Positions 11,726 to 32,135 of a stretch of DNA of 64,000 bases are shown here, one piece after another. The position numbers and the translations under genes are program-made. How positions within the stretch are numbered: the first letter of the stretch is position 1; each line of letters begins with the position of its first letter. The notes under the pieces are model-generated. The model worked only from the letters and a program-made list of their open reading frames with translations, did no database searches and had not been told where the DNA came from. Location: the NCBI GenBank assembly GCA_013285505.1, contig CP053450.1, positions 2,588,796 to 2,652,795 on the forward strand. Reading direction: 5' to 3'. Source of the stretch: Planctomycetota bacterium. Its GTDB lineage: Bacteria > Planctomycetota > Phycisphaerae > Phycisphaerales > UBA1924.

Positions 11726-14700
11726 CTACTTCGGCTGATTCGGTGAGTGATTGCGAGTGTCGGTGCTGAAGACCAGGGCGTATCCGGCGGGGACGACGAA
11801 CAGGTTAAGGAAGGTGGAGGTGAGGAGGCCGCCGAGGGTGACGATCGCGAGGGGGGCGAGGAGTTCGCTTCCGGGCTTGCCGGAGGCGAGGGCGAGGGGG
11901 ACGAGGCCCAGGGCGGCGCAGAACGCGGTCATGAGGATGGGGACGAGTCGTTCCATGGAGCCCTGGATGACGGCGTCACGGAGGGGGACGCCCTCTTTGT
12001 GCATGAGGTGGTTGTAGTGGTTGATGAGAAGGATGCCGTTGCGGACGGCGATGCCGAAGAGGGTGATGAAGCCGACCATGCTGGCGATGGAGATGACGGG
12101 CGGCTCGTAGGTGGAGCTGAGGCCGAAGAGGCCGAGGGTGTTGGCGAACAGTCCGCCGCCCTCGGTGATGTAGATCGCGGCGATGCCGCCGATGAGGGCG
12201 AGGGGCATGTTGAGCATGACCAGTCCGGCGGCGCGCATGGAGCCGGTGGAGATCTGGAGCAGCATGAACATGACGACGAGGACACCGAGGCCGGCGATGG
12301 AGATGGTGCGTGCGGCGGACTGCTGGGCCTCGAATTGGCCGCCGTAGACGACGGTGTAGCCGGCGCGGTTGACGATGGGGGTGACGCGGGAGCGGACTTG
12401 TTCGATGAGGTCGCCGAGGTTGGCGCCTTCGGCGACGTTGAGGGAGATGACGGCCTTGCGTTGGGCGCTTTCGCGGGTGATGAGGTTGCTGGATCGTTCG
12501 GGGGCGATGTCGGCGACGTCGCGGAGGCGGACGGTGGCGCCGGAGCGGCCTCGGAGGAGGAGGGATTCGACCTGAGCGATGGTTTCGCGTTGGTCGGGGG
12601 CGAGTCGGACGACGAGGTCGTACTGGCGGAGGCCCTGATTGACCTTGGCGACGACCTCGCCGTAGATGGCTTCGCGGACCTGTTCGGCGGCGTCGGCGGG
12701 GCTGAGTCCGGCGGCTGCGAGGTCGGCGTGTCGGTAGCGGATGGGGAGCGAGGTGATCATGACCTCGCGGTTGGCGTTGACGTCTCGGGCGCCGGGGAGG
12801 GCTTGGAGTTCCGTCTCGACTTCTTTGGCGACGGCGCGGAGGCCGGGGAGGTCTTCGCCGAAGATGCTGATGGCGATGGCCGCGGGGGTGCCGGAGAGGA
12901 CGTGGCTGAGGCGGTGTTCGATGGGCTGTCCGACCTGGGTGACGATGCCGGGGACGGAGGCGAGGATGGCGTCGATCTCGGCGCGGACGGCCTCGCGGTC
13001 GCGGCCGGGTTGAACGGTGACCTCGATCTCGGAGCTGCTGACGGGTTCGGCGTGTTCGTCGCGTTCGGCGCGGCCGGTGCGGCGGGCGACGGTCTCGACG
13101 CCGTCGATCTGGACGAGTCGGCTCTCGACGCCCTGGGCGAGGCGGTCGCTCTCGTTGAGTGAGGTGCCGGGGGGGGCGAAGAGGAAGACGGTGAAGGTGC
13201 CCTCGTTGAAACTGGGGAGGAAGGAGGTGCCGAAGGTGGAGGCGAGCCAGAGGGTGGCGAGTGTGGCGAGGCCGGCACCGCTGAGGACCCAGACTCGGAG
13301 CTTGATGGCGGTGCGGAGTGTGGGTTCGTAGACGCGTTTGAGGAGACGGACGAGGAAGCCGTCGCGGTCTTCATGCTTGCCGCCGAGCTTGCCTCGGAGG
13401 AGGTAGCGGCACATGGCGGGGGTGACGGTGAGGGCGACGATGAGTGAGGCGAGGATGGAGACCATGTAGGTGAGGGCGAGTGGGCGGAAGAAGCGGCCCT
13501 CGAGGCCGTCGAGGAAGAGGAGGGGGACGAAGACCATGACGATGATCACGGTCGCGAAGACCATGGCGGGCCGGATCTCGTTGCTGGCGTCGAAGATGAT
13601 CTCGGTGACGGGGCGTTGGTCGGCGGCGGGTCTGGCGCGGTTCTGCTTGAGGCGGCGGAAGACGTTCTCGACGTCGATAATGGCGTCGTCAACGAGGACG
13701 CCGATGGCGACGGCGAGGCCGCCGAGAGTCATGACGTTGAGCCCGAGCTGCATCCAGTCCATCATGAGGAGTCCGACGGCGATGGAGATGGGCAGGGCGG
13801 TGAGGGTGATGATGGTGGTGCGCACGTTGAGCAGGAAGAGGATGAGGATGATGGCGACGATGATGACCGCGTCGCGGAGGACGTGGAGGACGTTGTCGAT
13901 CGAGCGTTCGATGAAGTGGCTCTGGCGGACGACGTCGCGGTTGAGGACGATGCCGGCGGGAATGACGGCCTCGGCCTGGTCGAGGAGTTCGTCGATGCGT
14001 TCGGTGAGGGCGAGGGTGTTGGTGCCGGGTGACTTCTTGATGGAGAGGATGACGGCGGGTGCGCCGCCCTCGGCGCCGGTGCCGCGTTTGGGGGCGGGGC
14101 CGAGGCGGACGTCGGCGACCTGGCCGATGGTGACGGGCACGCCGCTCTGGTGTTTGATGATGGTGTTGGCGACGTCGGCGGCGCTGGTGACGCGGCTCTG
14201 CTGGCGGAGGGGGATCTCGCGGTTGTCGGCGTCGGTGAGATAGCCGCCGCTGGCGGTGGAGTGGGCACCGCGGGCGGCCTCGACGACGTCGGAGATGGTG
14301 AGGCCGTAGAGACGGAGGCGTTCCTGGTCGGCGTTGACCTGGTATTCGGGGAGCTCGCCGCCGATGGCGACGACCTGGGCGACGCCGGGGATGGCGAGGA
14401 TCTTGTTTCGCAGCTCAAACTCGGCGTAGGAGCGGATTTCGAGGGGGGTGGCGGTGTTGTCGGGAGAGGAGAGCGAGACGAGCATGATCTCGCCGACAAT
14501 GGAGCTGATGGGGGTGAGCTCGACGTGGACGTCGTCGGGGATGTCTTCGCGGACCGCGGCGAGGCGCTCGGCGACGAGTTGTCGGGCGCGGTAGAGGTCC
14601 GCGCCCCAGTCGAGATCGACCCAGACGATGGAGAGACCGATGGCGCTGGAGCTGCGGACACGGCGTACGCCGCTCATGCCGTTGACGGCCGTCTCGATGG

Positions 14701-14902
14701 GGAAGGTGACGTACTGCTCGACCTCGTCGGCGGCGAGGCCGCCGGCCTCTGCCATGATGACGACGGTGGGCGCGTTGAGTTCCGGGAAGACGTCCACGCT
14801 CATCTTGGGGACGCGGTAGGCGGCGAAGCCAACGAGAAGAAGAGCGGCGATGAGGACGAAGGAGGAGTATGTCAGTGAGAAGCGGATGAGACTCTTGAGC
14901 AT
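11726..14902 (-). CDS. Heavy-metal efflux RND transporter, CusA/CzcA type
   Basis: 1058 residues, full length for the HME-RND family and uninterrupted. The N-terminal membrane helix is followed by the FPELNAPTVVI porter segment, a second porter half, and twelve predicted membrane helices with the central proton-relay helix AIGVLVDDAIIDVENVF. This pump sits in the inner membrane as a trimer and drives metal ions (Cu/Ag or Zn/Co/Cd) through the adaptor and outer-membrane factor encoded just upstream. The gap to the adaptor gene is 15 bases. Ion specificity cannot be fixed from the sequence; the VDDAI variant of the relay helix matches neither reference pump exactly. Confidence 0.9.
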   Translation of the reverse strand: MLKSLIRFSLTYSSFVLIAALLLVGFAAYRVPKMSVDVFPELNAPTVVIMAEAGGLAADEVEQYVTFPIETAVNGMSGVRRVRSSSAIGLSIVWVDLDWGADLYRARQLVAERLAAVREDIPDDVHVELTPISSIVGEIMLVSLSSPDNTATPLEIRSYAEFELRNKILAIPGVAQVVAIGGELPEYQVNADQERLRLYGLTISDVVEAARGAHSTASGGYLTDADNREIPLRQQSRVTSAADVANTIIKHQSGVPVTIGQVADVRLGPAPKRGTGAEGGAPAVILSIKKSPGTNTLALTERIDELLDQAEAVIPAGIVLNRDVVRQSHFIERSIDNVLHVLRDAVIIVAIILILFLLNVRTTIITLTALPISIAVGLLMMDWMQLGLNVMTLGGLAVAIGVLVDDAIIDVENVFRRLKQNRARPAADQRPVTEIIFDASNEIRPAMVFATVIIVMVFVPLLFLDGLEGRFFRPLALTYMVSILASLIVALTVTPAMCRYLLRGKLGGKHEDRDGFLVRLLKRVYEPTLRTAIKLRVWVLSGAGLATLATLWLASTFGTSFLPSFNEGTFTVFLFAPPGTSLNESDRLAQGVESRLVQIDGVETVARRTGRAERDEHAEPVSSSEIEVTVQPGRDREAVRAEIDAILASVPGIVTQVGQPIEHRLSHVLSGTPAAIAISIFGEDLPGLRAVAKEVETELQALPGARDVNANREVMITSLPIRYRHADLAAAGLSPADAAEQVREAIYGEVVAKVNQGLRQYDLVVRLAPDQRETIAQVESLLLRGRSGATVRLRDVADIAPERSSNLITRESAQRKAVISLNVAEGANLGDLIEQVRSRVTPIVNRAGYTVVYGGQFEAQQSAARTISIAGLGVLVVMFMLLQISTGSMRAAGLVMLNMPLALIGGIAAIYITEGGGLFANTLGLFGLSSTYEPPVISIASMVGFITLFGIAVRNGILLINHYNHLMHKEGVPLRDAVIQGSMERLVPILMTAFCAALGLVPLALASGKPGSELLAPLAIVTLGGLLTSTFLNLFVVPAGYALVFSTDTRNHSPNQPK

Positions 14903-14917
14903 GGCGTGGCCCCTTCC

Positions 14918-16371
14918 CTATTCGTCTTCGCCGGAGTGGAACGTGCCGTCGGCGTGAAAGTGACCACCCGCGTCCTGCCCGGCGTTTGCGGAGGCGAGCA
15001 TGAGTTGGAAGGCGCCGTCGAGGACGACCTCGTCGCCGGTGCGGAGGCCGCTGTTGACGGCGGTCCAGCGCCCGTCGGAGAGGCCGAGGTCGGCCTGGAG
15101 GCGGATGGCCCGGTTGGGATCGGCGGGGTCGCGACGGAAGATGACGCGTTCGAGGCCGTCGGTCTGGATGGCGGCGTTGGGGACGGCCAGAACCGGGGCG
15201 GCGGTCTCGTCGGTGATGATCTCGAGCTGGGAGGTGATCCCTGCGCGGGCCCAGGGGGCGAGCGTTTCGGGGATGACGAACAGATCGATGGTCCGGTCGT
15301 CGGGATCGCCGGAGAGGCCGATGGAGAGCGTGCCGGTCATGGTCTGGCTCATGTCGATCGCGCCGGCCACGCGGGTGATCTGCGGGGTGACGATGCGGGC
15401 GGGGAGGCCGTCGCGGAGACGTCCGAGGTCGCTCTGCAGCGCAGAGGCGTGGAAGCGGATGCGGTCGGGCTGGAGGGTAGTGACGACGGGGGTCTTCTCG
15501 TCGGCCCAGGCACCGTCGGTGAGGCCGAGGGACTCGACGATGCCGGGCTCGCGAGCGACGACCTGGATCGTGGTCAGCGTGCGCGCCAGCGGGGGAGCTG
15601 GCCGCGGGTGGCCTCGACCGGCTCGGTGAGGGTCTCGGTGGAGAGGCCTGTGAGCGTGGCGGCGACGTCGAGAAGCAGTTCGCGGCTGGAGCGGGCCGCG
15701 GCGAGGCCGGAGATGGTCTCGGCTTCGTCGGCTTCGAGTTCGGCCTCCTTCTCGAGGACCTCGGCGAGGTCGGCCTGGGCGGCGGCGGCGGTGCCTCGAG
15801 CCTCGGTGAGCTCGGCGAGCCGGCCGCCGCCGGCGGTGACGAGGGCTTCGAGCTGCGCGATGCGTTGATCGTGGATCTCGATGACGCGGGTGAGCTGTTG
15901 CTCGTGGTTGTGGTGGGCCTCGCGGAGCGGGCCGTAGCTGTCGCGGCGGGAGGTGAGCCGCTGGATCGCGAGTTCGGCGTCGGTGAGTTCGCGTTGCAGC
16001 GAACGCCAGGCAGGGGAGTCGATCTGGTAGAGGGGTGTGCCGGGCTCGACGGCGTCGAACTGGTTGACGAGGATCTCGACGCGTCCGGCCAGCGAGGTGC
16101 GGTATTCGCGCCGCGCGGTGGGCAGGAACTCGAAACGCCCGGGCGTGCGGAGCATGGCCTCGACCCGGCGGGGCTCGACCTTGACGAAGGTGATCCCGAG
16201 GTTCTGGCGGACGGCGGCAGGGATATCGATGCGGTTTGTCGGGGCCGCGGCGGGCTCGTTGGCGCTGGTCTCGGCGCCGGCATCGGCCTCGGGCTCGGGC
16301 TTTCCGGAGCAGGCGGTGAGTGCTGCAACCGCTGCGACGAGCAGCATGGTGCGGGGTGTGGCTGAGTTCAT
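14918..16371 (-). CDS. RND efflux periplasmic adaptor, CusB type (frameshifted here)
   Basis: About 484 residues. The N terminus (ATG 16371) has a lipoprotein signal ending AALTACSG. The beta-barrel strand DIPAAVRQNLGI, a lipoyl half SLAGRVEILVNQFDAVEPGTPLYQI and a long coiled-coil hairpin (residues about 110-240) follow. At about residue 260 the frame ends in RWRAR; adding one base in the G run 15591-15595 resumes with LARTLTTIQVVAREPGIV and the C-terminal barrel down to GGHFHADGTFHSGEDE. The span modulo 3 agrees with one missing base. ATGA overlap with the preceding outer-membrane gene implies translational coupling. The His-containing tail may bind metal. Confidence 0.82.
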
Positions 16372-17790
16372 GGCGTGTCTCCGGTCGCGCTCTGGGTCGC
16401 GTCGGTGTCTTGTGATTGCGTATCGGGGCCGAGGAGCTGCGCGATGGTGATCTCGATCTGGCGTTCTTCCTCGCGCAGCACGAGCAGCCTGGACTTGGCG
16501 TCGGCCTGTCGGGTGACGGTGTCGAGAAGGAGAAGAGTGTCAACATCGCCGAGGGAGGCGAGGTGCTCCACATCTGCGGCCTGCGCGGTGAGCATGGGGA
16601 CGAGCGTGGACTCGTAGGCCGTCTGCTGGCTTCGGACGGCTTCGAGTGCGGCGCGGGCGGACTGCAGCTGGTGGAGGAGGTGTTCGAAGGTGGTCTCGGC
16701 GCTGCCGCGGGCGAGGGGCGCGGGCGGCGATGGCCTCGGCGATGCCGGGCGCGGTTGGCGTTGAGCGAGGGGATCGGGAGCGAGAGGCCGAGCAGGAGGC
16801 GGTCGTCGTCCTCGTTGGCGTAGCCGGTGCCGATGGTGATGTCGGGGTACTGCTTGCGGACTTCGAGTCGGAGGGCGTGCTCGGCGGCCTGATACTCGGC
16901 TCGCCGCACTGCGAGGAGCGTGTTGGACTCGATCATTCTGGAGGCCAGGGTCGGATCGGGTTTGACCGGGAGCGTCGGGAGGCCGGGAATGAGGTCGATC
17001 GTTGTTGCGGGCGGGAGGCCGGCGATCGCGAGCAGGTCGAGCCGGGCCTGGCGGGCCTGCCGTTCGGCGTCGGTGTGTGCGGCGCGCTGTGCGGCGAGTT
17101 CGGCGCGGAAGAGGCGGGCGTCTACCCGCCGGATCTCGCCCGCGGCCTCGAGCTGGTCTGTGAGTGAAATGATGCGTTCGAGCTGGGCCAGAGCCTCGTT
17201 GTGCAGGTCGAGCTGGAGGGCGGCGGTGGTCCAGCGGGTCCATCGCCTTCGGACCTCGATTCTGGTACGCCACTCGGCGTCGGCAACTCGGCGGAGTTGG
17301 GCTTCGTGCTCGGCGCCGGCGAGGTCGCGCTCGATGCCGAGCCGGCCGGAGACGGGGAGCGTGAACTGCAGGCTGAATCCGAATTCGAACGGGGCTGCGG
17401 GGGAGAGGATCTCGGCACCGTCGAAGCCGAAGACTGGGTCTTCCCAGAGTCCGGCGTTCTCGTAGGTAGCGAGGGCGACGCCGGCCTGGAGCCGGGCGAG
17501 ACGGAGGTCGGGGTTGTAGAAGAGGGCAACGACCTCGGCCTCAGCAGCGGTAAGGCCGTCGGCGAAGTCCATCCGCGCAGGGACCGTGGCGTCGGACTCC
17601 CGGAGCCTTGCGGCGAACGCTTCGACGGGCTCGGCGCTGAGGGGCCGGGAATCGAGCTCTGCGGTATATGCGCCGAGGTCGAGCGGGGCCGCCGAGTAGC
17701 TCTGGCAGCCGCCCAGGATAGTGCCGAGTGCGGCGAGCAGGAAGGCGCCGCCGAGCGGTGCGCGCGCCTCGCGCTGAGTATGTGGAGCAT
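16368..17790 (-). CDS. TolC/CusC-like outer-membrane efflux factor (multiply frameshifted here)
   Basis: About 474 residues over three frames. One frame gives a lipoprotein leader (GGAFLLAALGTILGGCQS) and the first TolC-like helical repeat through YPDITIGTGYANEDDDRLLLGLSLPIPSLNANR. Removing one G at 16747-16749 gives GIAEAIAAR, and removing another at 16715-16718 gives ARGSAETTFEHLLHQLQ and the second repeat to TGA 16368. Near the start, the ATG at 17790 needs one added base in the GC repeat 17760-17767 to join the leader. Net +1 agrees with the length. It would form the outer-membrane channel of the efflux complex. The stop overlaps the adaptor start (ATGA). Confidence 0.75.
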
Positions 17791-18425: not shown

Positions 18426-21400
18426 TTAAGCGTTGACCTCGAGCAGGTGGCGGACGAGCGCGGGCGTGGGCATGCCGAAGGGCCGGAATTTCTCTTCGGC
18501 GCCGCGTTCCTCATCGTAGAAGATGGCGCGGTGGAGGCCGAGGCGTCCGGCGGAGGTGGACTCGATGAGCATGCTGCTGTCGTTGGCAGACATCTGCATG
18601 AGGACGCGGTTGCCAAACTCGGCGATGGAGGCGCGGTCGAGAGCGCGGACGAGGCTGGTGGTGGTGTCGCACCACGCGAGCACGAAGACGCCGAGGCGGG
18701 GGCCGTCGATGAGGAGTTGCTTGAGTTGTTGGTCGGGGGCGGGGCCCTTTGCGTCGGCGTCCATGCTGAAGGAGAAGTCGTCGTCCTTGCGGCGGAGGCT
18801 GCGGAGCCAGTGCAGGCCGTGGAGGACGAGGTAGATCGCGGGTCCGTCGGTGCGGTTGGCGTCTTCGCGGGCGAGCATCTCGGTGTAGCACTGCTCGACG
18901 GCCTGGGGGGCGTCGCGCCAGGAGACGGCGTGGACCTCGTGCGGGAGGGGTTCGAGGGAGGCGGCGAGGCGGCCGGCGAGTGGGTCGTCTTCGGGGGTGG
19001 CGTCGACGATGTGGAAGCTGGCGGCGCGGTCGCCCTCGGCGTCGTGCTGGGCGGCGAGGCTGATGACGGAGGCCGCGAGCATGGCGGCGGCGGTCTCGGT
19101 GCGCTGGCCGACGATGAGGAGGTTTGCACCGCCCCGGCGGCGCATGGTGGCGCCGGTGGGGTCTTTGATGGAGACCGGCTCGCCGAGCCAGGCGATGGGT
19201 GCGATGGGGCGCTGGTGTTCGGCGAGGCCGCGGCGGAGGGCGCGGTTGCGGTCGAGTTCGGCGGGGGCGTTGCCCTCGAAGAACACCGGCTCATCGAAGG
19301 TGACGGAGCGTTCTTCGGCCATGTGCTCGACGCGGCGGAGGACCTCGTCGCGGGCGTCGTCGCCGAGCCAGGCGACCTGGAACGGGTTGTTGCCTTCGAC
19401 GAGGCCGTTGGCGTCGTTGTAGATCGCTTCGCCCGGGCGGGTGAGGAGGCGGGCGGCGCCGTTGTCTTCGCTGAGGATGAGGTAGCTGTCGGTCTCGGAG
19501 CACTTCATGGCGATGCGGACGGCCATCTGTCCGACGGTGGAGCGGGAGAGGGTGTAGGCGCCGCTGAGGGTCTGGCTGGCGAGCAGGATGTGGATGCCGA
19601 AGGCGCGGCCCTGGCGGACGAGGCGGTCGAGGAGGAGCGAGGCGTCCTGGGCGATGCGGTCGTCCTCGACGAAGAACTCCTGGAACTCGTCGATGATGAG
19701 GATGGACCGGGGCATGGGCTCGTCGGGGAAGCGCTGGCGGAACTGGGCCAGTGACTGGAGGCCCCTGTCGCGGAAGAGGTCGCCGCGGCGGCGGAGTTCG
19801 GTGTCGAGGCGTTGGAGGACGCTGAGACCGAACTCGCGGTCTGACTCGATGGCGACGGCGCGGACGTGCGGGAGCTTGCCGCTGGCGTAGGGCTTGAACT
19901 CGACGCCCTTTTTGAAGTCGACGAGATAGAACTCGACCTCGGAGGGGTCGTGCCAGAGCATGGCGGCGGTGGTGAGGACGTGGAGGAGTGTGGACTTGCC
20001 CGAGCCGGTCTTGCCGGCGATGAGGGCGTGCTGGCTGGTGCCCTTGCCGAGGCGGAGTTCCTGGGCTTTGGTGGCGCCCGGCGCGGCCGATGGGGATGCG
20101 GAGTTCGTCCGCGGCGCTGCGGGTCCAGCGGGAGTCTTCGGGCGGCTCGACGACGCTGTAGCGGACCTCGACGCGGCCGGCGGACTGGGCTTCTGTCCCG
20201 ATGAGGTCGAGCAGGGCGACGGTCTCGGTTTCGCTGGGTGGCGGGTCGGGGGTGAACGGGAGGTCGCCGAGTGGATCGCTCTGGAGACGGAACCGCGGGT
20301 GGGCCGGGTGGTCGTCGGCGGCGGCTCTGGGGCTGGAGTACGACACGCGCGCGCGGAGGGCGTCGAGGTCGAATCCGGCGGGCTGCTTGGCGGCAAGGTC
20401 GGACAGCATGACGACGAAGACGCCGCAGCGGGGGCCGGCGTCGATGACGGAGGCGAGCCGGGCGACGGCGTCCTCGGAGAAATTGGCCGGGAAGTCGGCG
20501 ATGACGAGGTAGCGGTAGGGCTCGGCGATCTCGCCGGCGACGCGGTTGTACTCGTCGATGGTGGCGTAGTCGTCGCGGAGGTACTTCTGGATGACGTTTT
20601 CGATGTGCTCGGTGAGTTCGGTGAGGCGTTGCTCGATGTGGCGGCTCTCGGTCCAGATGCGGGAGCCGACGAGGGAGTCGTCGTGATCGGCGAGGCGCAT
20701 GAGCCCGGCGAAGGAGCGGCCGCGGCCGACGGGATCAATGATGGTGAGCTTGGCCCGGCCCGGCGGGATCGACGCGAGGAGGCGGAGGAGGACGGTCTGG
20801 AGGAGGGTGAGGCCGGCGTTGCGCTGTCCGGCCGCGGCCTCGACCAGGAGCGACTGCCGGTCGACCATGTCGAGCACGACGGGGAGGTCGAGTGTGTCGG
20901 GGAGCGGGCGGTAGTTCCGCGCGTCGAGTGCGAGCTCGGCGAGCAGTGAGGCGAGGTCGAAGGTGACCCGGCCGAGGCGGGCGGCGGTCCTGCCGGGGGT
21001 TGGCGGCTGCCAAGCACCGTGGAGTCGGTCGTTCCACTCGGGGCTTGCGAGCGCGGCGGTGTGGGCGATAGACTCGGCTTCGGCGGCGCTTTCCCGGATC
21101 TGCGTCTGCCATTCGCGGTCGAGTTCGGCGGTCAATTCCTGGGTGGCCGTCTCGGTGGCGGCGAGGGTGTCGCGGGCGGTCTGTTCGGCCTCGGCGACGG
21201 CGGAGGTGTGGGTCGCGTGGGCAGAATCGCGGTATTCGGTGATGCGTCGATCGATCTCGGTGCGGGCTGCGGCGGCGGCACGTTCGAGCTCGGCGAGCTC
21301 GGCCTCGTGCTTGGCAGTGGCGGCGCTGAGGTGGAGCTGCCACTCTGACTCGAGCGATTCGGTGGCCTGCTTGGCTTCGCCGTTGGCGCGTTCGAGTTCG

Positions 21401-22348
21401 GCCTTGCACTGGGAGACGAGCAGTTCGATGGCGTCGTCCCGCTCGGTCTCGCTGCGGGCTTGCACGGCTTCGGCGCTGGAGTAGATGGTTTGCGCGCGCG
21501 CTTGCCACTCGCTGATATCGCGGCGGAATCTTCGTGCGGCTCGAATACGGAGCGGGACGGCGATGATGACGGCCAGGAGCAGTCCGCCCAGGCCGGCGGC
21601 GAGGGCGGGTTTCCAGTCGTTCCAGTCGGTCGCGAGGCCGACGCCCGCGGCCGCGGCGCCGGCGGTGATCGGGACGAGCACGAGGTGGAGGCCGCCTCGG
21701 AAGACTTTGGGAAGGAATGCCCGGTCGATGGACTTGGCCGCGTGGCCGAGGTCGGCGACCAGCTCCTCGAATTGCTCGGGGTCGTCGGTTGCGGGCTCTG
21801 CGGCGGTGCCTTCGGGTGGCGGGACATCTTTCCGCATCGCGACGTTCGGCCAGAGGGAGTCGATGAAGGCCTCCCACTCCCCCACCGTCTTGCGCCCGGC
21901 CTCGATGCGTTTGAGGATGGCTGTGTGTGCCTGCTGCGGCTTGGGGCGGCCGCTCTCGAGCACGGTCTCGGCGAGCCAGACCGCCTCGCGTCGGCGGCGT
22001 TCGATCCGTTCCATACGGGCGTCATTGCGCTCGCTGTCGCTGGCTGACTGGGCGTCTCGCGCGCTCCGGACGGCGGCGAGCCGTTCGGCGTGCTGGGCGT
22101 CGGCGCGTTGGAGTGCTTCGGCGAGTTCGGTCTCGGCGCTTGCGGCGCCGGTCGAGTTCGGCGTTGGCTGTCTCGATTGCCTGCGAGCGGTCGCGCTCGA
22201 CGCGGGACCGTGCCGCGGCGAGGCGCTCGGCCGCCTCGGTGGATCGCTCGGCAAAGGAGGTGAGGAACCTGCGCAACCCGGCGACGAGAGCTTGCTCGCG
22301 GCTGAACAGCCCGGGTTGCGGTGTGGTTCTTGGCGTCGGCTCGGCCAT
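18426..22348 (-). CDS. FtsK/SpoIIIE-type ATPase of a type VII secretion-like locus (frameshifted here)
   Basis: About 1307 residues. After an N-terminal helical region come two membrane helices (about residues 220-240 and 246-266), a long coiled coil, then three RecA-like modules. The first (about 455-640) has a Walker B-like IADFPANF but no P-loop. The second has an intact Walker A AGKTGSGKST (about 779) and Walker B SILIIDEFQEFF (about 886). The third, from GGANLLIVGQRTETAA onward, lacks the P-loop Gly-Lys-Ser/Thr. This layout parallels EssC/EccC motors. Two extra bases break the frame, near 22145-22150 and at 20077-20079; length modulo 3 agrees. Upstream WXG100-like genes supply the context. 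Substrates are unknown. Confidence 0.82.
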
Positions 22349-22463
22349 CGGCTGCAGCACCTCGACTCGCGGCGGGCCGGTCGTGCCCGCGCGGCTCCTC
22401 TTGATCTTGTCGTCCGTCTCCCGCGCTACGTCGCGCCCGAGGGGTTTGCCGGTGGGCGATACT

Positions 22464-22676
22464 CTACTCGCAGGCCCTCCGGGCTGCATCCGCGGCTTCG
22501 GCGAGGCGGTCCATGGCCTCCGTGGCGCGGCGGATGTGCCCGTCGATCGGCGCGATGTAGCGGGCCTCGAACGCCTCGGCGTTCTGGTCGGTCCACGACT
22601 CGTGCAGACCGGCCCATTCGCGGGCGAACTGCTTGCCGGCTTCGAGGAGCATGCCGCGTCCGGCTGAGGTGCTCAT
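22464..22676 (-). CDS. Small WXG100-like protein (W-T-D turn)
   Basis: 70 residues with two predicted amphipathic helices joined by SWTDQNAEAFE, in the position where WXG100 proteins carry Trp-x-Gly. No signal peptide. Its ATG overlaps the stop of the helical protein gene before it (ATGA), and the FtsK-type ATPase gene starts 115 bases downstream. It is shorter than the usual ~100 residues. Inferred role: substrate or co-substrate of the ATPase. Confidence 0.65.
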   Translation of the reverse strand: MSTSAGRGMLLEAGKQFAREWAGLHESWTDQNAEAFEARYIAPIDGHIRRATEAMDRLAEAADAARRACE

Positions 22677-23200
22677 GCGGAGCCTCCCTCTTCGGGTTGC
22701 GCGGGGCGTGCTGGCCGCCGGTCGCCGATCTGGGCGTAGCTCTCGAGAATGTTGCCCATCTGCTCGAGTGCGCCGACGGCCTTGCCGAGTTCGCCCCGGA
22801 CGAACCAGCCGAGCTGGGAGACGGCGCCGTGGTACTCCTCGAGGGCTCGCTCGAGCTGCCTGGCCCAGCGGCGGACGTGCTCGAGTTTTTCCTCGGCGTC
22901 GCGGAGGCGTCGCTTGGCGGCGTCGAGATCGAGGCGGTCGTCGACCTTGGGGAGCGGGTTGTCCTGCATGGGGTCGGCGCGGGAGATCATGCGGGTGCGC
23001 GACCGGACAATCTCCTCCTGGTAGCGCCTGATCTCGCGTTGGAGTGTGGGCCGGCGTTCACGGAGGAGCCAATCGAGCGTGCGGCGGGCGGAGATCTCGG
23101 AGGCGGAGATTGCGGCCTGGCTCTCTTCGGCGAACTTGACGACGGCGGGCTTGAAGGCCCGCAGTGCCTCGACAGATCCAACGTTTGCCCGTTCGGCCAT
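22673..23200 (-). CDS. Helical/coiled-coil protein of the type VII-like locus
   Basis: 175 residues from ATG 23200, almost entirely helical by composition. There is a first helical part (SVEALRAFKPAVVKFAEE), a basic coiled-coil centre (RRYQEEIVRSRTRM; DAAKRRLRDAEEKLEHVRRW) and a hydrophobic helix ending in NILESYAQIGD. No signal peptide, membrane segment or catalytic motif is visible. It is placed between two WXG100-like genes and coupled to the second by ATGA overlap, so it is probably a chaperone, adaptor or LXG-like partner. The family is not recognised. Confidence 0.65.
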   Translation of the reverse strand: MAERANVGSVEALRAFKPAVVKFAEESQAAISASEISARRTLDWLLRERRPTLQREIRRYQEEIVRSRTRMISRADPMQDNPLPKVDDRLDLDAAKRRLRDAEEKLEHVRRWARQLERALEEYHGAVSQLGWFVRGELGKAVGALEQMGNILESYAQIGDRRPARPAQPEEGGSA

Positions 23201-23250
23201 ACCGCGTTGCTCCCTGCTGCTGTCGTGTTGCCTCTTCCGGCCGCTCGGAG

Positions 23251-23523
23251 CTATCGCTGGCGGAGGTACGCCTCGAGCCGCTCGGCCTTGCGGAGCAGGA
23301 GGGGCACCTGCTCTTCGCTGACTTCGATGAATCGCTGGAGCTGGCGGGTGGTCTGCTCGAACTCCTGCTGGAACTTGGCGTGCTCCTGGTCCCTCCATGT
23401 CTGCCCCAACGCGACGGCGTTGCCCTGGAGTTGTTGCATGGCCTGCCCCATGTTGGCGTTGAACGCCTTGAGCAGTTGCGCGAAACGACGCAGTTCTTCG
23501 GGATCGGCAACGGCTTTGGCCAC
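23251..23523 (-). CDS. WXG100-family protein
   Basis: 90 residues. GTG 23523 is preceded by a strong AGGAGGT site. The protein is a helix-turn-helix hairpin with the turn TWRDQEHAKFQ at mid-length (Trp near residue 43), matching the ESAT-6/WXG100 plan with Asp in place of Gly. The conserved C-terminal helix is Leu/Gln-rich. WXG100 proteins are small dimeric substrates of type VII secretion, recognised by the FtsK-type motor encoded downstream. It is the first gene of the minus-strand cluster WXG100 - helical protein - small WXG100-like - ATPase. Confidence 0.82.
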   Translation of the reverse strand: MAKAVADPEELRRFAQLLKAFNANMGQAMQQLQGNAVALGQTWRDQEHAKFQQEFEQTTRQLQRFIEVSEEQVPLLLRKAERLEAYLRQR

Positions 23524-23540
23524 GTGGCACCTCCTGTGCG

Positions 23541-29834: not shown

Positions 29835-31826
29835 TTAGCGGCAGGAGTTCCAGATGTTGAGGAAGCAGAGGAAGTCCTGCGTGTTGACGGTGCTGTCACC
29901 GTTGCAGTTGGCTCTCGCTTCGCCGTTGTTCCACGAGTTGAGGAACGCGAGGAAGTCCTGCGTGTTGACGGTGCTGTCACCGTTGTAGTTGGCGTAGTCG
30001 CAGGGATCGCTGCCGACGGGGATGACGGCGAACTGGTCGCCGGCGTAGGAGGTCAGGTCGATCGTGTTGGTCGCGCCGCTGTCGCCGACGTTGCCGGTGC
30101 CGCCGGGCAGGCCGGGGAGGAACTGGTTGGAGAGGTAGCCGGCGTCCTCGTTGGAGATGAAGCCGAGCACCTTGATGTCGCTGGAGCCGTCCCAGCCGAG
30201 CTCGTCGAGGTCGATGACGATCTCGATGCCGGTGTCGACGGCCGCGGCGCCGGAGACGTCGCTGTCGGTGACGCCGGCGGTGTTGGAGTTGTCGATGTAG
30301 AGGCCCAAGAGCCCGTCAACGGGGTTGTTGGGGTCGAGCTGGGTGGTGCGGGGGCCGTAGTTGCAGAAGATGTTCGCGGTGAAGCCGTCCTGGATGTCCA
30401 GGAGCGGGCCGTCGAAGGGGACGGCGACGCCGTCGCTCTTGAAGTTGCCGTCGTAGGCGCCGTAATCGAGGGGGAAGCCCGAGAAGTCTTCGAGGCGTCC
30501 GTCGGTGCGGAGGACGGCGCAGTCGAGCACCTGGTAGACGGGGAAGTTGTTGGTCTTGACGCTCATCCAGTAGTCGGGCTCGAAGCCGGCGTCGAGGGTG
30601 AGGCCGTTACCCGAGCCGTCGTCGCCCATGCGGTTGAGGTTGCCGAAGGAGATGTCGACGTTGTCGCCGCGGAGCTTGTTCTGGCCGCCGGGCAGTGCGT
30701 CGATGAGGACGTTGATCTTGTTGCCGGAGTTCGAGTCCTTGCCGCCGTCGCCGTTCTCGATGTTGCCGGTGAAGAGGAGGTAGAGCTGGTTGTTGTCGGT
30801 GTCGACGTAGCCGTAGAGACCGGCGAGCTCGGAGCCGTTGGCGTAATCGACGGTGCCGCCGGGCTTGCAGCGTCCGGGGACGCCCTCGGTGTTGGAGTTG
30901 TCGAGGGTGAGCTGGACGCCGTAGGGGTTGTCGCCGCCGTCGAGGAAGCCGTCGGAGCCGGGGAGGGTCGAGCCGAGGTAGCTGCCGTAAACGCCGTTGA
31001 GGCTGGCGAAGTTGGCGTAGATGGTGACGGGGTCGCCGCCGTTGGTGCAGCCGAGGTAGTAGTCGGCGGTGAACCCGGCGTCGAAGATCATGCCGTTGTC
31101 GGAGCCGTCGTCGCCCATGCGGTTGAGGCCGTCGAAGTCGATATCGACGTTGTCGCCGCGGAGCTTGTTCTGGCCGCCGCTCTCGGTGTCGAAGAAGATG
31201 TCGAGCTTGTTGAAGTTGGACTCGAGGTTGCCGGCGATGAGGACGTAGAGGGTGTCGCTGGCGACGACGGCGTAGATGCCGTCGAGCTCGGAGCCGTTGG
31301 CGACATCGACGCTGCCGTCGGAGTTGTCGCCGAAGCCGGTCTGGTTGTCCTGGAGGGCGATCTGGACGTAGGAGGCGTCGAGCATGCCGTCGATGGTGGG
31401 CTCGGCGCCCGCGGCCGGGGTGAACTCGACGTACTGGGTGCCGGCGATCGCGTTGAAGTCGAGATCGCGAGGCTCACCGAGGTTGGGTGTGCCGAGGCCC
31501 GCGCCGGCGAGGACCTGGTTGGAGACGAAGTCGTGGCCGCCGCCGTTGACGAACGCGGCGATGCGGATGGCCCCGGCGGGGCTGCCCAGCTCGAGCAGGG
31601 GGATGGCGAACTCGACGCCGGTGACCACGTCGCCGGGGTTGCCGATGTCGTTGCCGTCGCAGTCGCCGTGGCCGGAGTCGCCGAAGAGGGTGGGGTTGGT
31701 CTGCAGCGCGATCGGGCCGCCGTAGATGGAATCACGCTGGCCGTCCATGACGGGCTGGGCGAGGGCGGGAACGGCGGCGATGGCCGCGGCGAGGCCGGCG
31801 GCACGAACGATGGACGCGGTGTTCAT
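29835..31826 (-). CDS. Secreted repeat protein with C-terminal dockerin-like anchor
   Basis: 663 residues from ATG 31826 (AGGAG eight bases upstream), with a Sec signal ending VPALAQP. The body contains two copies of a module with GGQNKLRGDNVDI and LNRMGDDGS motifs (about residues 220-265 and 390-435), plus DNSNTEGV/DNSNTAGV repeats, resembling beta-sandwich surface proteins. The C terminus carries two Asn/Asp-rich loops (YNGDSTVNTQDFLAFLN; CNGDSTVNTQDFLCFLN) of the Phycisphaerae anchor type, ending NSCR. The function of the body is unknown; a surface or matrix role is inferred. Confidence 0.85.
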   Translation of the reverse strand: MNTASIVRAAGLAAAIAAVPALAQPVMDGQRDSIYGGPIALQTNPTLFGDSGHGDCDGNDIGNPGDVVTGVEFAIPLLELGSPAGAIRIAAFVNGGGHDFVSNQVLAGAGLGTPNLGEPRDLDFNAIAGTQYVEFTPAAGAEPTIDGMLDASYVQIALQDNQTGFGDNSDGSVDVANGSELDGIYAVVASDTLYVLIAGNLESNFNKLDIFFDTESGGQNKLRGDNVDIDFDGLNRMGDDGSDNGMIFDAGFTADYYLGCTNGGDPVTIYANFASLNGVYGSYLGSTLPGSDGFLDGGDNPYGVQLTLDNSNTEGVPGRCKPGGTVDYANGSELAGLYGYVDTDNNQLYLLFTGNIENGDGGKDSNSGNKINVLIDALPGGQNKLRGDNVDISFGNLNRMGDDGSGNGLTLDAGFEPDYWMSVKTNNFPVYQVLDCAVLRTDGRLEDFSGFPLDYGAYDGNFKSDGVAVPFDGPLLDIQDGFTANIFCNYGPRTTQLDPNNPVDGLLGLYIDNSNTAGVTDSDVSGAAAVDTGIEIVIDLDELGWDGSSDIKVLGFISNEDAGYLSNQFLPGLPGGTGNVGDSGATNTIDLTSYAGDQFAVIPVGSDPCDYANYNGDSTVNTQDFLAFLNSWNNGEARANCNGDSTVNTQDFLCFLNIWNSCR
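29868..29985 (-). repeat. Two identical 37-bp direct repeats encoding the dockerin loops
   Basis: 29868-29904 and 29949-29985 are identical over 37 bases and are spaced by 81 bases (27 codons), encoding the GDSTVNTQDFL segment twice. Identity at the DNA level suggests recent duplication or gene conversion. Confidence 0.9.
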
Positions 31827-32135
31827 TCGACAATCTCCTGATGCACAAGACGGGCCTGTGTCTCTCCAACACGTTCGCCCCGTGTATCCCGGCAGAACTG
31901 TCGGGGGCGGGGCCATCACCATGCTATGGACATTGCCGGCGGATTTCGAGCTATTTCTCTGGGTCATTCGCGCGGCGGCCCCATAACGAGTGCGGCCGGC
32001 ACCTCCGGCACCTCTCCGGTATGCAGGCGGCTCTGCATATTCATGAAATCTGCACTTTCCGAACCCAGAATGCCGGGTGTTCGGGTGCACTGCGCTAATA
32101 TGGCGATCGGGGTGACCTGATCAGGAGACTGCCGG
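31827..32135. promoter_or_regulatory. Divergent control region, dockerin gene / prepilin-like gene
   Basis: 309 bases with no gene, clearly AT-richer than its surroundings. GCTAATAT at 32094-32101 is a candidate -10 for the prepilin-like gene, whose AGGAG ribosome site is at 32123-32127. No convincing -35, riboswitch or operator could be identified. Confidence 0.4.

What the first reader, a model, noticed from the sequence alone, without database searches (positions are those of the whole stretch)
18426..23523. Minimal type VII secretion-like locus in a planctomycete
Seen: four minus-strand genes in tight order, namely a WXG100 protein (90 aa, TWRD turn), a 175-aa helical protein, a 70-aa second hairpin protein with SWTD turn (ATGA-coupled), and a ~1307-aa FtsK/SpoIIIE ATPase with two membrane helices, a coiled coil and three RecA-like modules. 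Known: WXG100 substrates plus an EssC/EccC-type motor are the two core parts of type VII secretion in Gram-positive bacteria. Inference: this is a stripped-down, possibly Gram-negative-adapted export system with two hairpin proteins as an unequal WXG pair and the helical protein as adaptor. No EsxA-sized toxin, EssA/EssB or mycosin gene is visible, so how cargo would cross the outer membrane is an open question.
Basis: partly seen in the sequence, partly recalled or inferred. Interest (0 to 1): 0.8.

Follow-up and report, generated by a model that had tools for sequence, protein, structure and literature searches.

The report
Four-gene type VII-like machine, planctomycetes
A set of four genes (a WXG100 hairpin, a long coiled-coil hairpin, a short second hairpin and a membrane motor related to the type VII secretion ATPase) is kept together in about a third of planctomycetes, bacteria with two membranes, which makes it a likely but untested minimal protein-export machine outside the Gram-positives.

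Summary
The four genes are there as described, but in this assembly the ATPase frame is broken twice (near 22,145 and 20,085). An intact copy in the same genus, and broken neighbouring genes, point to assembly indels. In 298 Phycisphaerae-class genomes the ATPase occurs in 94, the WXG in 96, both in 92. Where the genes have scattered, the parts checked are still retained. Nothing else nearby is conserved. The ATPase folds like EccC/EssC: two membrane helices, helical stalk, three FtsK modules, only the middle one with a Walker A. HP70 is a shortened WXG relative; HEL is a hairpin of two ~70-residue helices. In a plasmid relative the HEL slot holds a nuclease followed by an immunity gene, so HEL probably is cargo or cargo-carrier. 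EssB is absent, YukD is not at the locus, and the YxxxD/E signal is missing. A 2012 footnote already noted planctomycete 'solo WXG' plus a three-module ATPase with only the middle one active. Verdict: new variant of a known kind; export across the inner membrane is likely but unproven.

The parts
23251..23523 (-). WXG100 protein, 90 aa (TWRD turn); closest solved relative Helicobacter pylori HP0062
   Evidence: Pfam WXG100 E 3.3e-8, above cut-off; 49 of 49 family members match; profile hits 3fx7/2gts E 2.6e-13
23530..23535 (-). Shine-Dalgarno-like AGGAGG, six bases before the GTG start of the WXG gene
   Evidence: read in the sequence
22673..23200 (-). HEL, 175 aa: hairpin of two ~70-residue helices
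   Evidence: ORF; AlphaFold2 model mean pLDDT 87, helices 7-75 and 86-159; no known family
22464..22676 (-). HP70, 70 aa: short WXG-like hairpin (SWTD turn, conserved Cys near the C-terminus), ATGA-coupled to HEL
   Evidence: ORF; profile match to the WXG family E 8e-6; 6 of 50 members match Pfam WXG100, best 5.6e-5
18426..22348 (-). EccC/EssC-like membrane ATPase, about 1307 aa if intact; broken into three frames in this assembly
   Evidence: intact homologues of about 1,300 aa
22154..22348 (-). ATPase N-terminal piece (first frame; start codon position inferred)
   Evidence: G661 alignment ends at 22154
20077..22137 (-). ATPase middle piece (second frame): coiled coils, membrane hairpin, first (inactive) FtsK-like module
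   Evidence: 60% identical to G661
21628..21684 (-). membrane helix 1 of the ATPase
   Evidence: hydropathy 1.85
21550..21606 (-). membrane helix 2 of the ATPase
   Evidence: hydropathy 2.44
18426..20093 (-). ATPase C-terminal piece (third frame): active middle module and inactive third module
   Evidence: PF01580 E 2.6e-28; 86% identical to G661
19992..20015 (-). Walker A GKTGSGKS of the middle module
   Evidence: motif positions invariant in alignment A4
19686..19703 (-). Walker B ILIIDE of the middle module

Best explanation
A four-component, inner-membrane, type VII-like export machine. Shown by computation: one WXG100 hairpin, one shortened WXG-like hairpin, one long helical hairpin (HEL) and one EccC/EssC-fold motor form a conserved, co-inherited unit across Planctomycetota. 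Inferred: WXG and HP70 form an unequal hairpin pair that docks on the motor; HEL is the dedicated cargo or cargo-carrier, like an LXG targeting domain whose toxin end has been lost or replaced; the motor hexamerises through its two-helix membrane hairpin, the middle module hydrolyses ATP, and folded helical substrate is threaded across the inner membrane. In planctomycetes the system looks domesticated: single copy, mostly vertical, with HEL ending in a tail or an Imm33-like domain instead of a toxin. How anything crosses the outer membrane is unknown.
For: Strict order in 63/63 named loci with all four parts and 37/40 class loci; co-occurrence 92 both, 2 ATPase only, 4 WXG only, 200 neither (Fisher p 3e-69); 116 of 394 planctomycete genomes. 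Parts retained even when scattered, e.g. G024: ATPase, WXG and HEL megabases apart. EccC/EssC fold: Foldseek E 8.5e-33 to EccC, VIA Z 27 to EccC and EssC ATPases 2-3, Z about 15 of the first module plus stalk to the EccC/YukB membrane-proximal part. WXG profile hits HP0062, EsxB and EsxA structures. HEL slot in a relative: Helicobacter plasmid WXG - helical protein with WHH/colicin-DNase end (E 1e-11, 1e-8) - SUKH immunity - 77 aa - FtsK; long HEL forms end in an Imm33-like domain (E down to 1e-14).
Against: No secretion data. No variable toxin set beside the planctomycete cassettes and as a rule only one WXG and one HEL copy per genome. The YxxxD/E signal is absent: Tyr is invariant in WXG and HEL, but the +4 residue is acidic in 0 of 49 and 5 of 57. 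EssB absent. Motors of plasmid cousins have no clear membrane hairpin, so part of the family may not export at all. The HEL profile match to the slot proteins is weak and coiled-coil-prone.
Confidence: 0.55

Rival explanations
1. An intracellular conflict or stress device: the FtsK-like motor remodels or releases a helical effector inside the cell and nothing is exported.
For: Plasmid relatives have motors without clear membrane hairpins and sit with CARF nuclease, VWA, PP2C, kinase and helicase genes (Caballeronia), TerD genes (Rhodococcus), Hsp70/GrpE, or nuclease plus SUKH immunity (Helicobacter).
Against: 39 of 40 class loci inspected carry at least one predicted membrane helix, most of them two, placed as in EccC/EssC; the planctomycete loci show no steady neighbours of that kind.
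Confidence: 0.25
2. A chromosome or division motor of FtsK type that happens to carry hairpin subunits.
For: The middle module also superposes well on FtsK motor domains (Z 28.8).
Against: Sequence profiles favour EccC/EssC over FtsK (118, 101 and 97 bits against 18); the ATPase is found in only 29% of planctomycete genomes, so it is not essential in the phylum.
Confidence: 0.07
3. In this genome the system is a decaying pseudogene.
For: Two frameshifts in the ATPase.
Against: Two neighbouring efflux genes are also shifted against intact same-genus homologues; the C-terminal piece is 86% and the WXG 94% identical to G661; the single-contig genome scores only 86% complete, as indel-rich assemblies do.
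Confidence: 0.06
4. A mobile type VII remnant, as the 2012 footnote suggested.
For: Patchy presence; plasmid relatives exist; one variant locus (L222) lies beside a transposase-like gene.
Against: In the ATPase tree Phycisphaerales rows form one group and the Planctomycetia-type rows one well-supported clade; no relative in IMG/VR.
Confidence: 0.07

Closest known systems
Planctomycete etc. 'solo WXG' with distinct YueA-like ATPase (Zhang et al. 2012, PMC3482391, Table 1 footnote 6)
   Same: Solo WXG, three FtsK/HerA modules of which only the middle is active, planctomycetes named
   Different: The passages read do not mention HEL, HP70, the fixed order or the co-inheritance; called mobile there, while the tree here looks mostly vertical within the phylum
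Helicobacter pylori HP0062 (PDB 3FX7, 2GTS)
   Same: Closest solved relative of the WXG protein (E 2.6e-13); WRD turn and an FtsK/SpoIIIE gene in its cluster (PMC3397514)
   Different: Function unknown; the plasmid cousin in Helicobacter sp. NHP19-012 has a motor without a clear membrane hairpin and a nuclease in the HEL slot
T7SSa/ESX (EccC, EsxA/EsxB) and T7SSb (EssC/YukB, EsxA)
   Same: WXG100 hairpin plus two-helix membrane motor of the same fold
   Different: No EssB found; EccB/D/E and mycosin not searched, but nothing else is conserved near the cassette; no YxxxD/E; one ATPase module fewer if the first module is the EccC DUF domain; long coiled-coil stalk; diderm hosts
T7SSg (Garrett and Palmer 2024, PMC11217815)
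   Same: Simple gene set, two WXG-like proteins, motor without FHA domains
   Different: T7SSg has a ubiquitin-like TsgB and a DUF5050 protein; hosts are Bacillota; no HEL
LXG toxins with Lap partners (from own knowledge)
   Same: Long helical hairpin plus small hairpin partners; toxin end in a plasmid relative
   Different: No sequence match found; planctomycete HEL lacks a toxin end

Membership tests
Type VII secretion (general) | WXG100-family hairpin protein | tested here: met
   34.1 bits over cut-off 27.3; 49 of 49 family members
Type VII secretion (general) | Membrane-anchored EccC/EssC-type FtsK/SpoIIIE motor | tested here: met
   Two membrane helices in most homologues; fold match to EccC and EssC; judged by fold and profile rank, not by the curated equivalog cut-off
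EccC/EssC equivalogs (TIGR03924, TIGR03925, TIGR03928) | Score above the curated cut-off | tested here: not met
   118 of 509, 101 of 347 and 97 of 778 bits
Type VII secretion (general) | YxxxD/E signal at the end of helix 2 | tested here: not met
   Tyr invariant, +4 acidic in 0 of 49 WXG and 5 of 57 HEL
T7SSb | EssB/YukC | tested here: not met
   0 of 24 carrier genomes; control rings in B. subtilis
T7SSb, T7SSg and most subtypes | Ubiquitin-like YukD/EsaB at the locus | tested here: not met
   Absent in 21 of 24 carrier genomes; the 3 hits lie far from the cassette
T7SSa | EccB, EccD, EccE, mycosin | not tested
   No dedicated profile searches run; only that no other neighbour is conserved
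Type VII secretion (general) | ATPase-dependent export of the WXG protein | not testable with these tools
   needs a mutant
Solo-WXG systems of Zhang et al. 2012 | Three FtsK/HerA modules, only the middle one active | tested here: met
   Walker A invariant in the middle module only; three modules in the model
Solo-WXG systems of Zhang et al. 2012 | Mobile | tested here: inconclusive
   Tree mostly follows taxonomy, no viral relatives, but plasmid cousins exist

The most novel reading that the evidence does not exclude
A complete type VII-type translocon reduced to four genes, native to a diderm phylum, whose single conserved cargo is a toxin-free long hairpin, so that type VII export has a housekeeping role in planctomycetes and the basic machine needs only motor, hairpin pair and cargo hairpin.
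Probability: 0.35. Interest if true: 0.8.

Novelty: new variant of a known kind. Interest (0 to 1): 0.6.

Why it matters
Type VII secretion is studied in Gram-positives and mycobacteria. A four-gene relative kept as a unit across a diderm phylum defines a much smaller candidate core, and makes the open question of which parts a type VII machine really needs testable: isolates that carry it exist (Aquisphaera insulae JC669, Paludisphaera soli JC670, Planctomycetales bacterium 10988). It also names two uncharacterised protein families (HEL and HP70) as parts of the unit.

Tried and rejected
Pfam and PDB profile searches with HEL gave only chance coiled-coil hits; structural matches of HEL are generic coiled-coil hairpins (Foldseek best E 0.09; VIA Z about 11 to unrelated proteins), so no fold-based function is claimed. 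HEL against WXG by profile: E 0.023, probability 2%, not taken as homology. PADLOC matches of the ATPase (SspH, mad8, HerA) cover only the P-loop module and were not taken as a defence assignment. A viral-contig scan found no relative. The pseudogene reading was rejected (see rivals).

Full report
What is in the window. Four minus-strand genes lie between 23523 and 18426: a 90-aa WXG100 protein, a 175-aa helical protein (HEL), a 70-aa hairpin (HP70) that starts in an ATGA overlap with HEL, and an FtsK/SpoIIIE ATPase. The WXG protein is over Pfam's cut-off (34.1 bits against 27.3) and is the only WXG100 match in the whole 4.12-Mb genome. The ATPase is not one frame: it runs in three, with breaks near 22,145 and 20,085. 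A genome of the same genus (G661) has the same four genes with the ATPase in one frame; against it two efflux genes beside the locus in the window are shifted too. I therefore read the breaks as assembly indels, though this is inference.

How widespread it is. The middle part of the ATPase finds a relative in 94 of 298 genomes of the class, and a profile of the first FtsK-like module finds one in 116 of 394 planctomycete genomes. The WXG family is in 96 of the same 298 genomes; 92 have both, 2 only the ATPase, 4 only the WXG, 200 neither (Fisher p about 3e-69; genomes are related, so the p-value overstates independence). In 40 fetched class loci, 37 have WXG, HEL and HP70 next to the ATPase in this order; in a public-genome scan with organism names, all 63 loci in which all four parts were detected have the same order, often with ATGA overlaps. 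The hosts are Phycisphaerales, Planctomycetales, Isosphaeraceae, Gemmatales and Pirellulaceae, plus one Lentisphaerae bin. No other gene family is a steady neighbour within about 8 kb.

Scattered but kept. In some genomes the unit has come apart. G242 and G152 keep WXG-HEL-HP70 together and the ATPase elsewhere; G270 and G395 keep the trio in another order. In G024 the ATPase, the WXG and HEL lie at 5.92, 2.50 and 4.30 Mb. HEL was found in 12 of 13 genomes examined for this, one copy each. Retention without linkage is strong evidence that the parts work together.

What the proteins are. WXG: all 49 family members match Pfam WXG100; in the PDB the profile's best hit is Helicobacter pylori HP0062 (3fx7, E 2.6e-13), then EsxB and EsxA structures. 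HP0062 is itself described as ESAT-6-like with a WRD turn and an FtsK/SpoIIIE gene in its cluster (PMC3397514). HP70 matches the WXG profile (E 8e-6, turn to turn) and has a nearly invariant Cys near its C-terminus. HEL is predicted as two antiparallel ~70-residue helices (pLDDT 87), with no recognisable family; in 14 of the 63 named loci it is longer than 300 residues, and all five of these that were scanned end in an Imm33-like domain (E down to 1e-14); the others end in a low-complexity tail.

The motor. Most homologues have two adjacent membrane helices. The model of a homologue (1,111 residues, pLDDT 83) shows a long helical stalk and three alpha/beta modules. Foldseek's best match is EccC (E 8.5e-33). 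VIA-align puts residues 529-1098 on ATPases 2-3 of EccC and EssC (Z 27) and 189-529 on the membrane-proximal DUF part of EccC and YukB (Z about 15). The ESX-3 paper shows that the EccC DUF is itself an ATPase-like fold (PMC6986878). So two registers are possible: modules equal to D1-D2-D3, or DUF-D1-D2 with one module missing; sequence profiles pair the active middle module with EccC D1, which favours the second. Only the middle module has a conserved Walker A.

What the slot of HEL tells. Plasmid relatives of the ATPase were found in Rhodococcus, Caballeronia, Deinococcus and Helicobacter. Four of them were tested and have WXG homologues beside the motor. In Helicobacter sp. NHP19-012 the order is WXG, a helical protein ending in a WHH/colicin-type DNase, a SUKH-type immunity protein, a 77-aa protein, and the motor. 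In Caballeronia a 436-aa helical protein with an unassigned globular end takes the same place. One Phycisphaerae-class genome (L222) has the order ATPase-WXG-WXG-helical protein-HP, the helical protein ending with an HExxH-like stretch (family support weak). This is the pattern of an exchangeable cargo end, and is why I read HEL as cargo or carrier. HEL's own profile match to these proteins is weak, so the link rests mainly on position. These cousins also carry a warning: their motors lack clear membrane hairpins and several sit among CARF, VWA, PP2C, kinase, TerD or chaperone genes, so an intracellular role is the main rival.

Known or new. Zhang et al. 2012 (PMC3482391) state in a table footnote that planctomycetes and other lineages have solo WXG domains with a distinct YueA-like ATPase whose middle module alone is active, 'mobile versions of T7SS'. 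My data confirm the ATPase statement, add HEL, HP70, the fixed order and the co-inheritance, and make mobility within planctomycetes less likely: the ATPase tree groups Phycisphaerales together and the Planctomycetia-type rows together, and no viral contig carries a relative. The 2024 survey of type VII variants a-j covers Gram-positives (PMC11217815). EssB is absent from 24 carrier genomes and YukD is not at the locus; the YxxxD/E signal is missing. I therefore do not file it under any named subtype; it is a type VII-like variant.

Noticed in passing
window 14918-17790: RND-type efflux genes (11726-17790) are frame-shifted at about 15,600 and 16,700 against intact homologues in the same-genus genome G661; the HrpB-like helicase at 29738-25799 also changes frame.
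   Followed up: partly
L236 (Caballeronia pSBC2-5), L238 (Helicobacter pNHP190012_1), L235 and L241 (Rhodococcus), L237 (Deinococcus): Plasmid clusters with a WXG protein and an FtsK-like motor without a clear membrane hairpin, some next to CARF nuclease, VWA, PP2C, kinase, TerD or Hsp70/GrpE genes; they look like uncharacterised conflict systems.
   Followed up: partly
L222 2280-10177: Variant cassette in a Phycisphaerae-class genome: ATPase, two WXG proteins, a helical protein with an HExxH stretch, HP protein; a transposase-like gene lies nearby.
   Followed up: partly
L132, L142, L190, L153, L178 (HEL genes): Long HEL proteins carry a C-terminal Imm33-like domain (PF24719), a domain named for immunity proteins, fused here to the putative cargo.
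   Followed up: partly
window 22464-22676 and family A5: HP70 has a nearly invariant cysteine close to its C-terminus; its role is unexplained.
   Followed up: no
L099 8340-8693: In this divergent planctomycete locus two hydrophobic stretches lie in a separate 118-aa frame just before a 1006-aa motor; split gene or indel.
   Followed up: no
L177: A Lentisphaerae bin carries the full cassette, nested among Phycisphaerae sequences in the ATPase tree; transfer or mis-binning.
   Followed up: no
window 29835-32090: 751-aa secreted-looking protein ending in two dockerin-like repeats.
   Followed up: no
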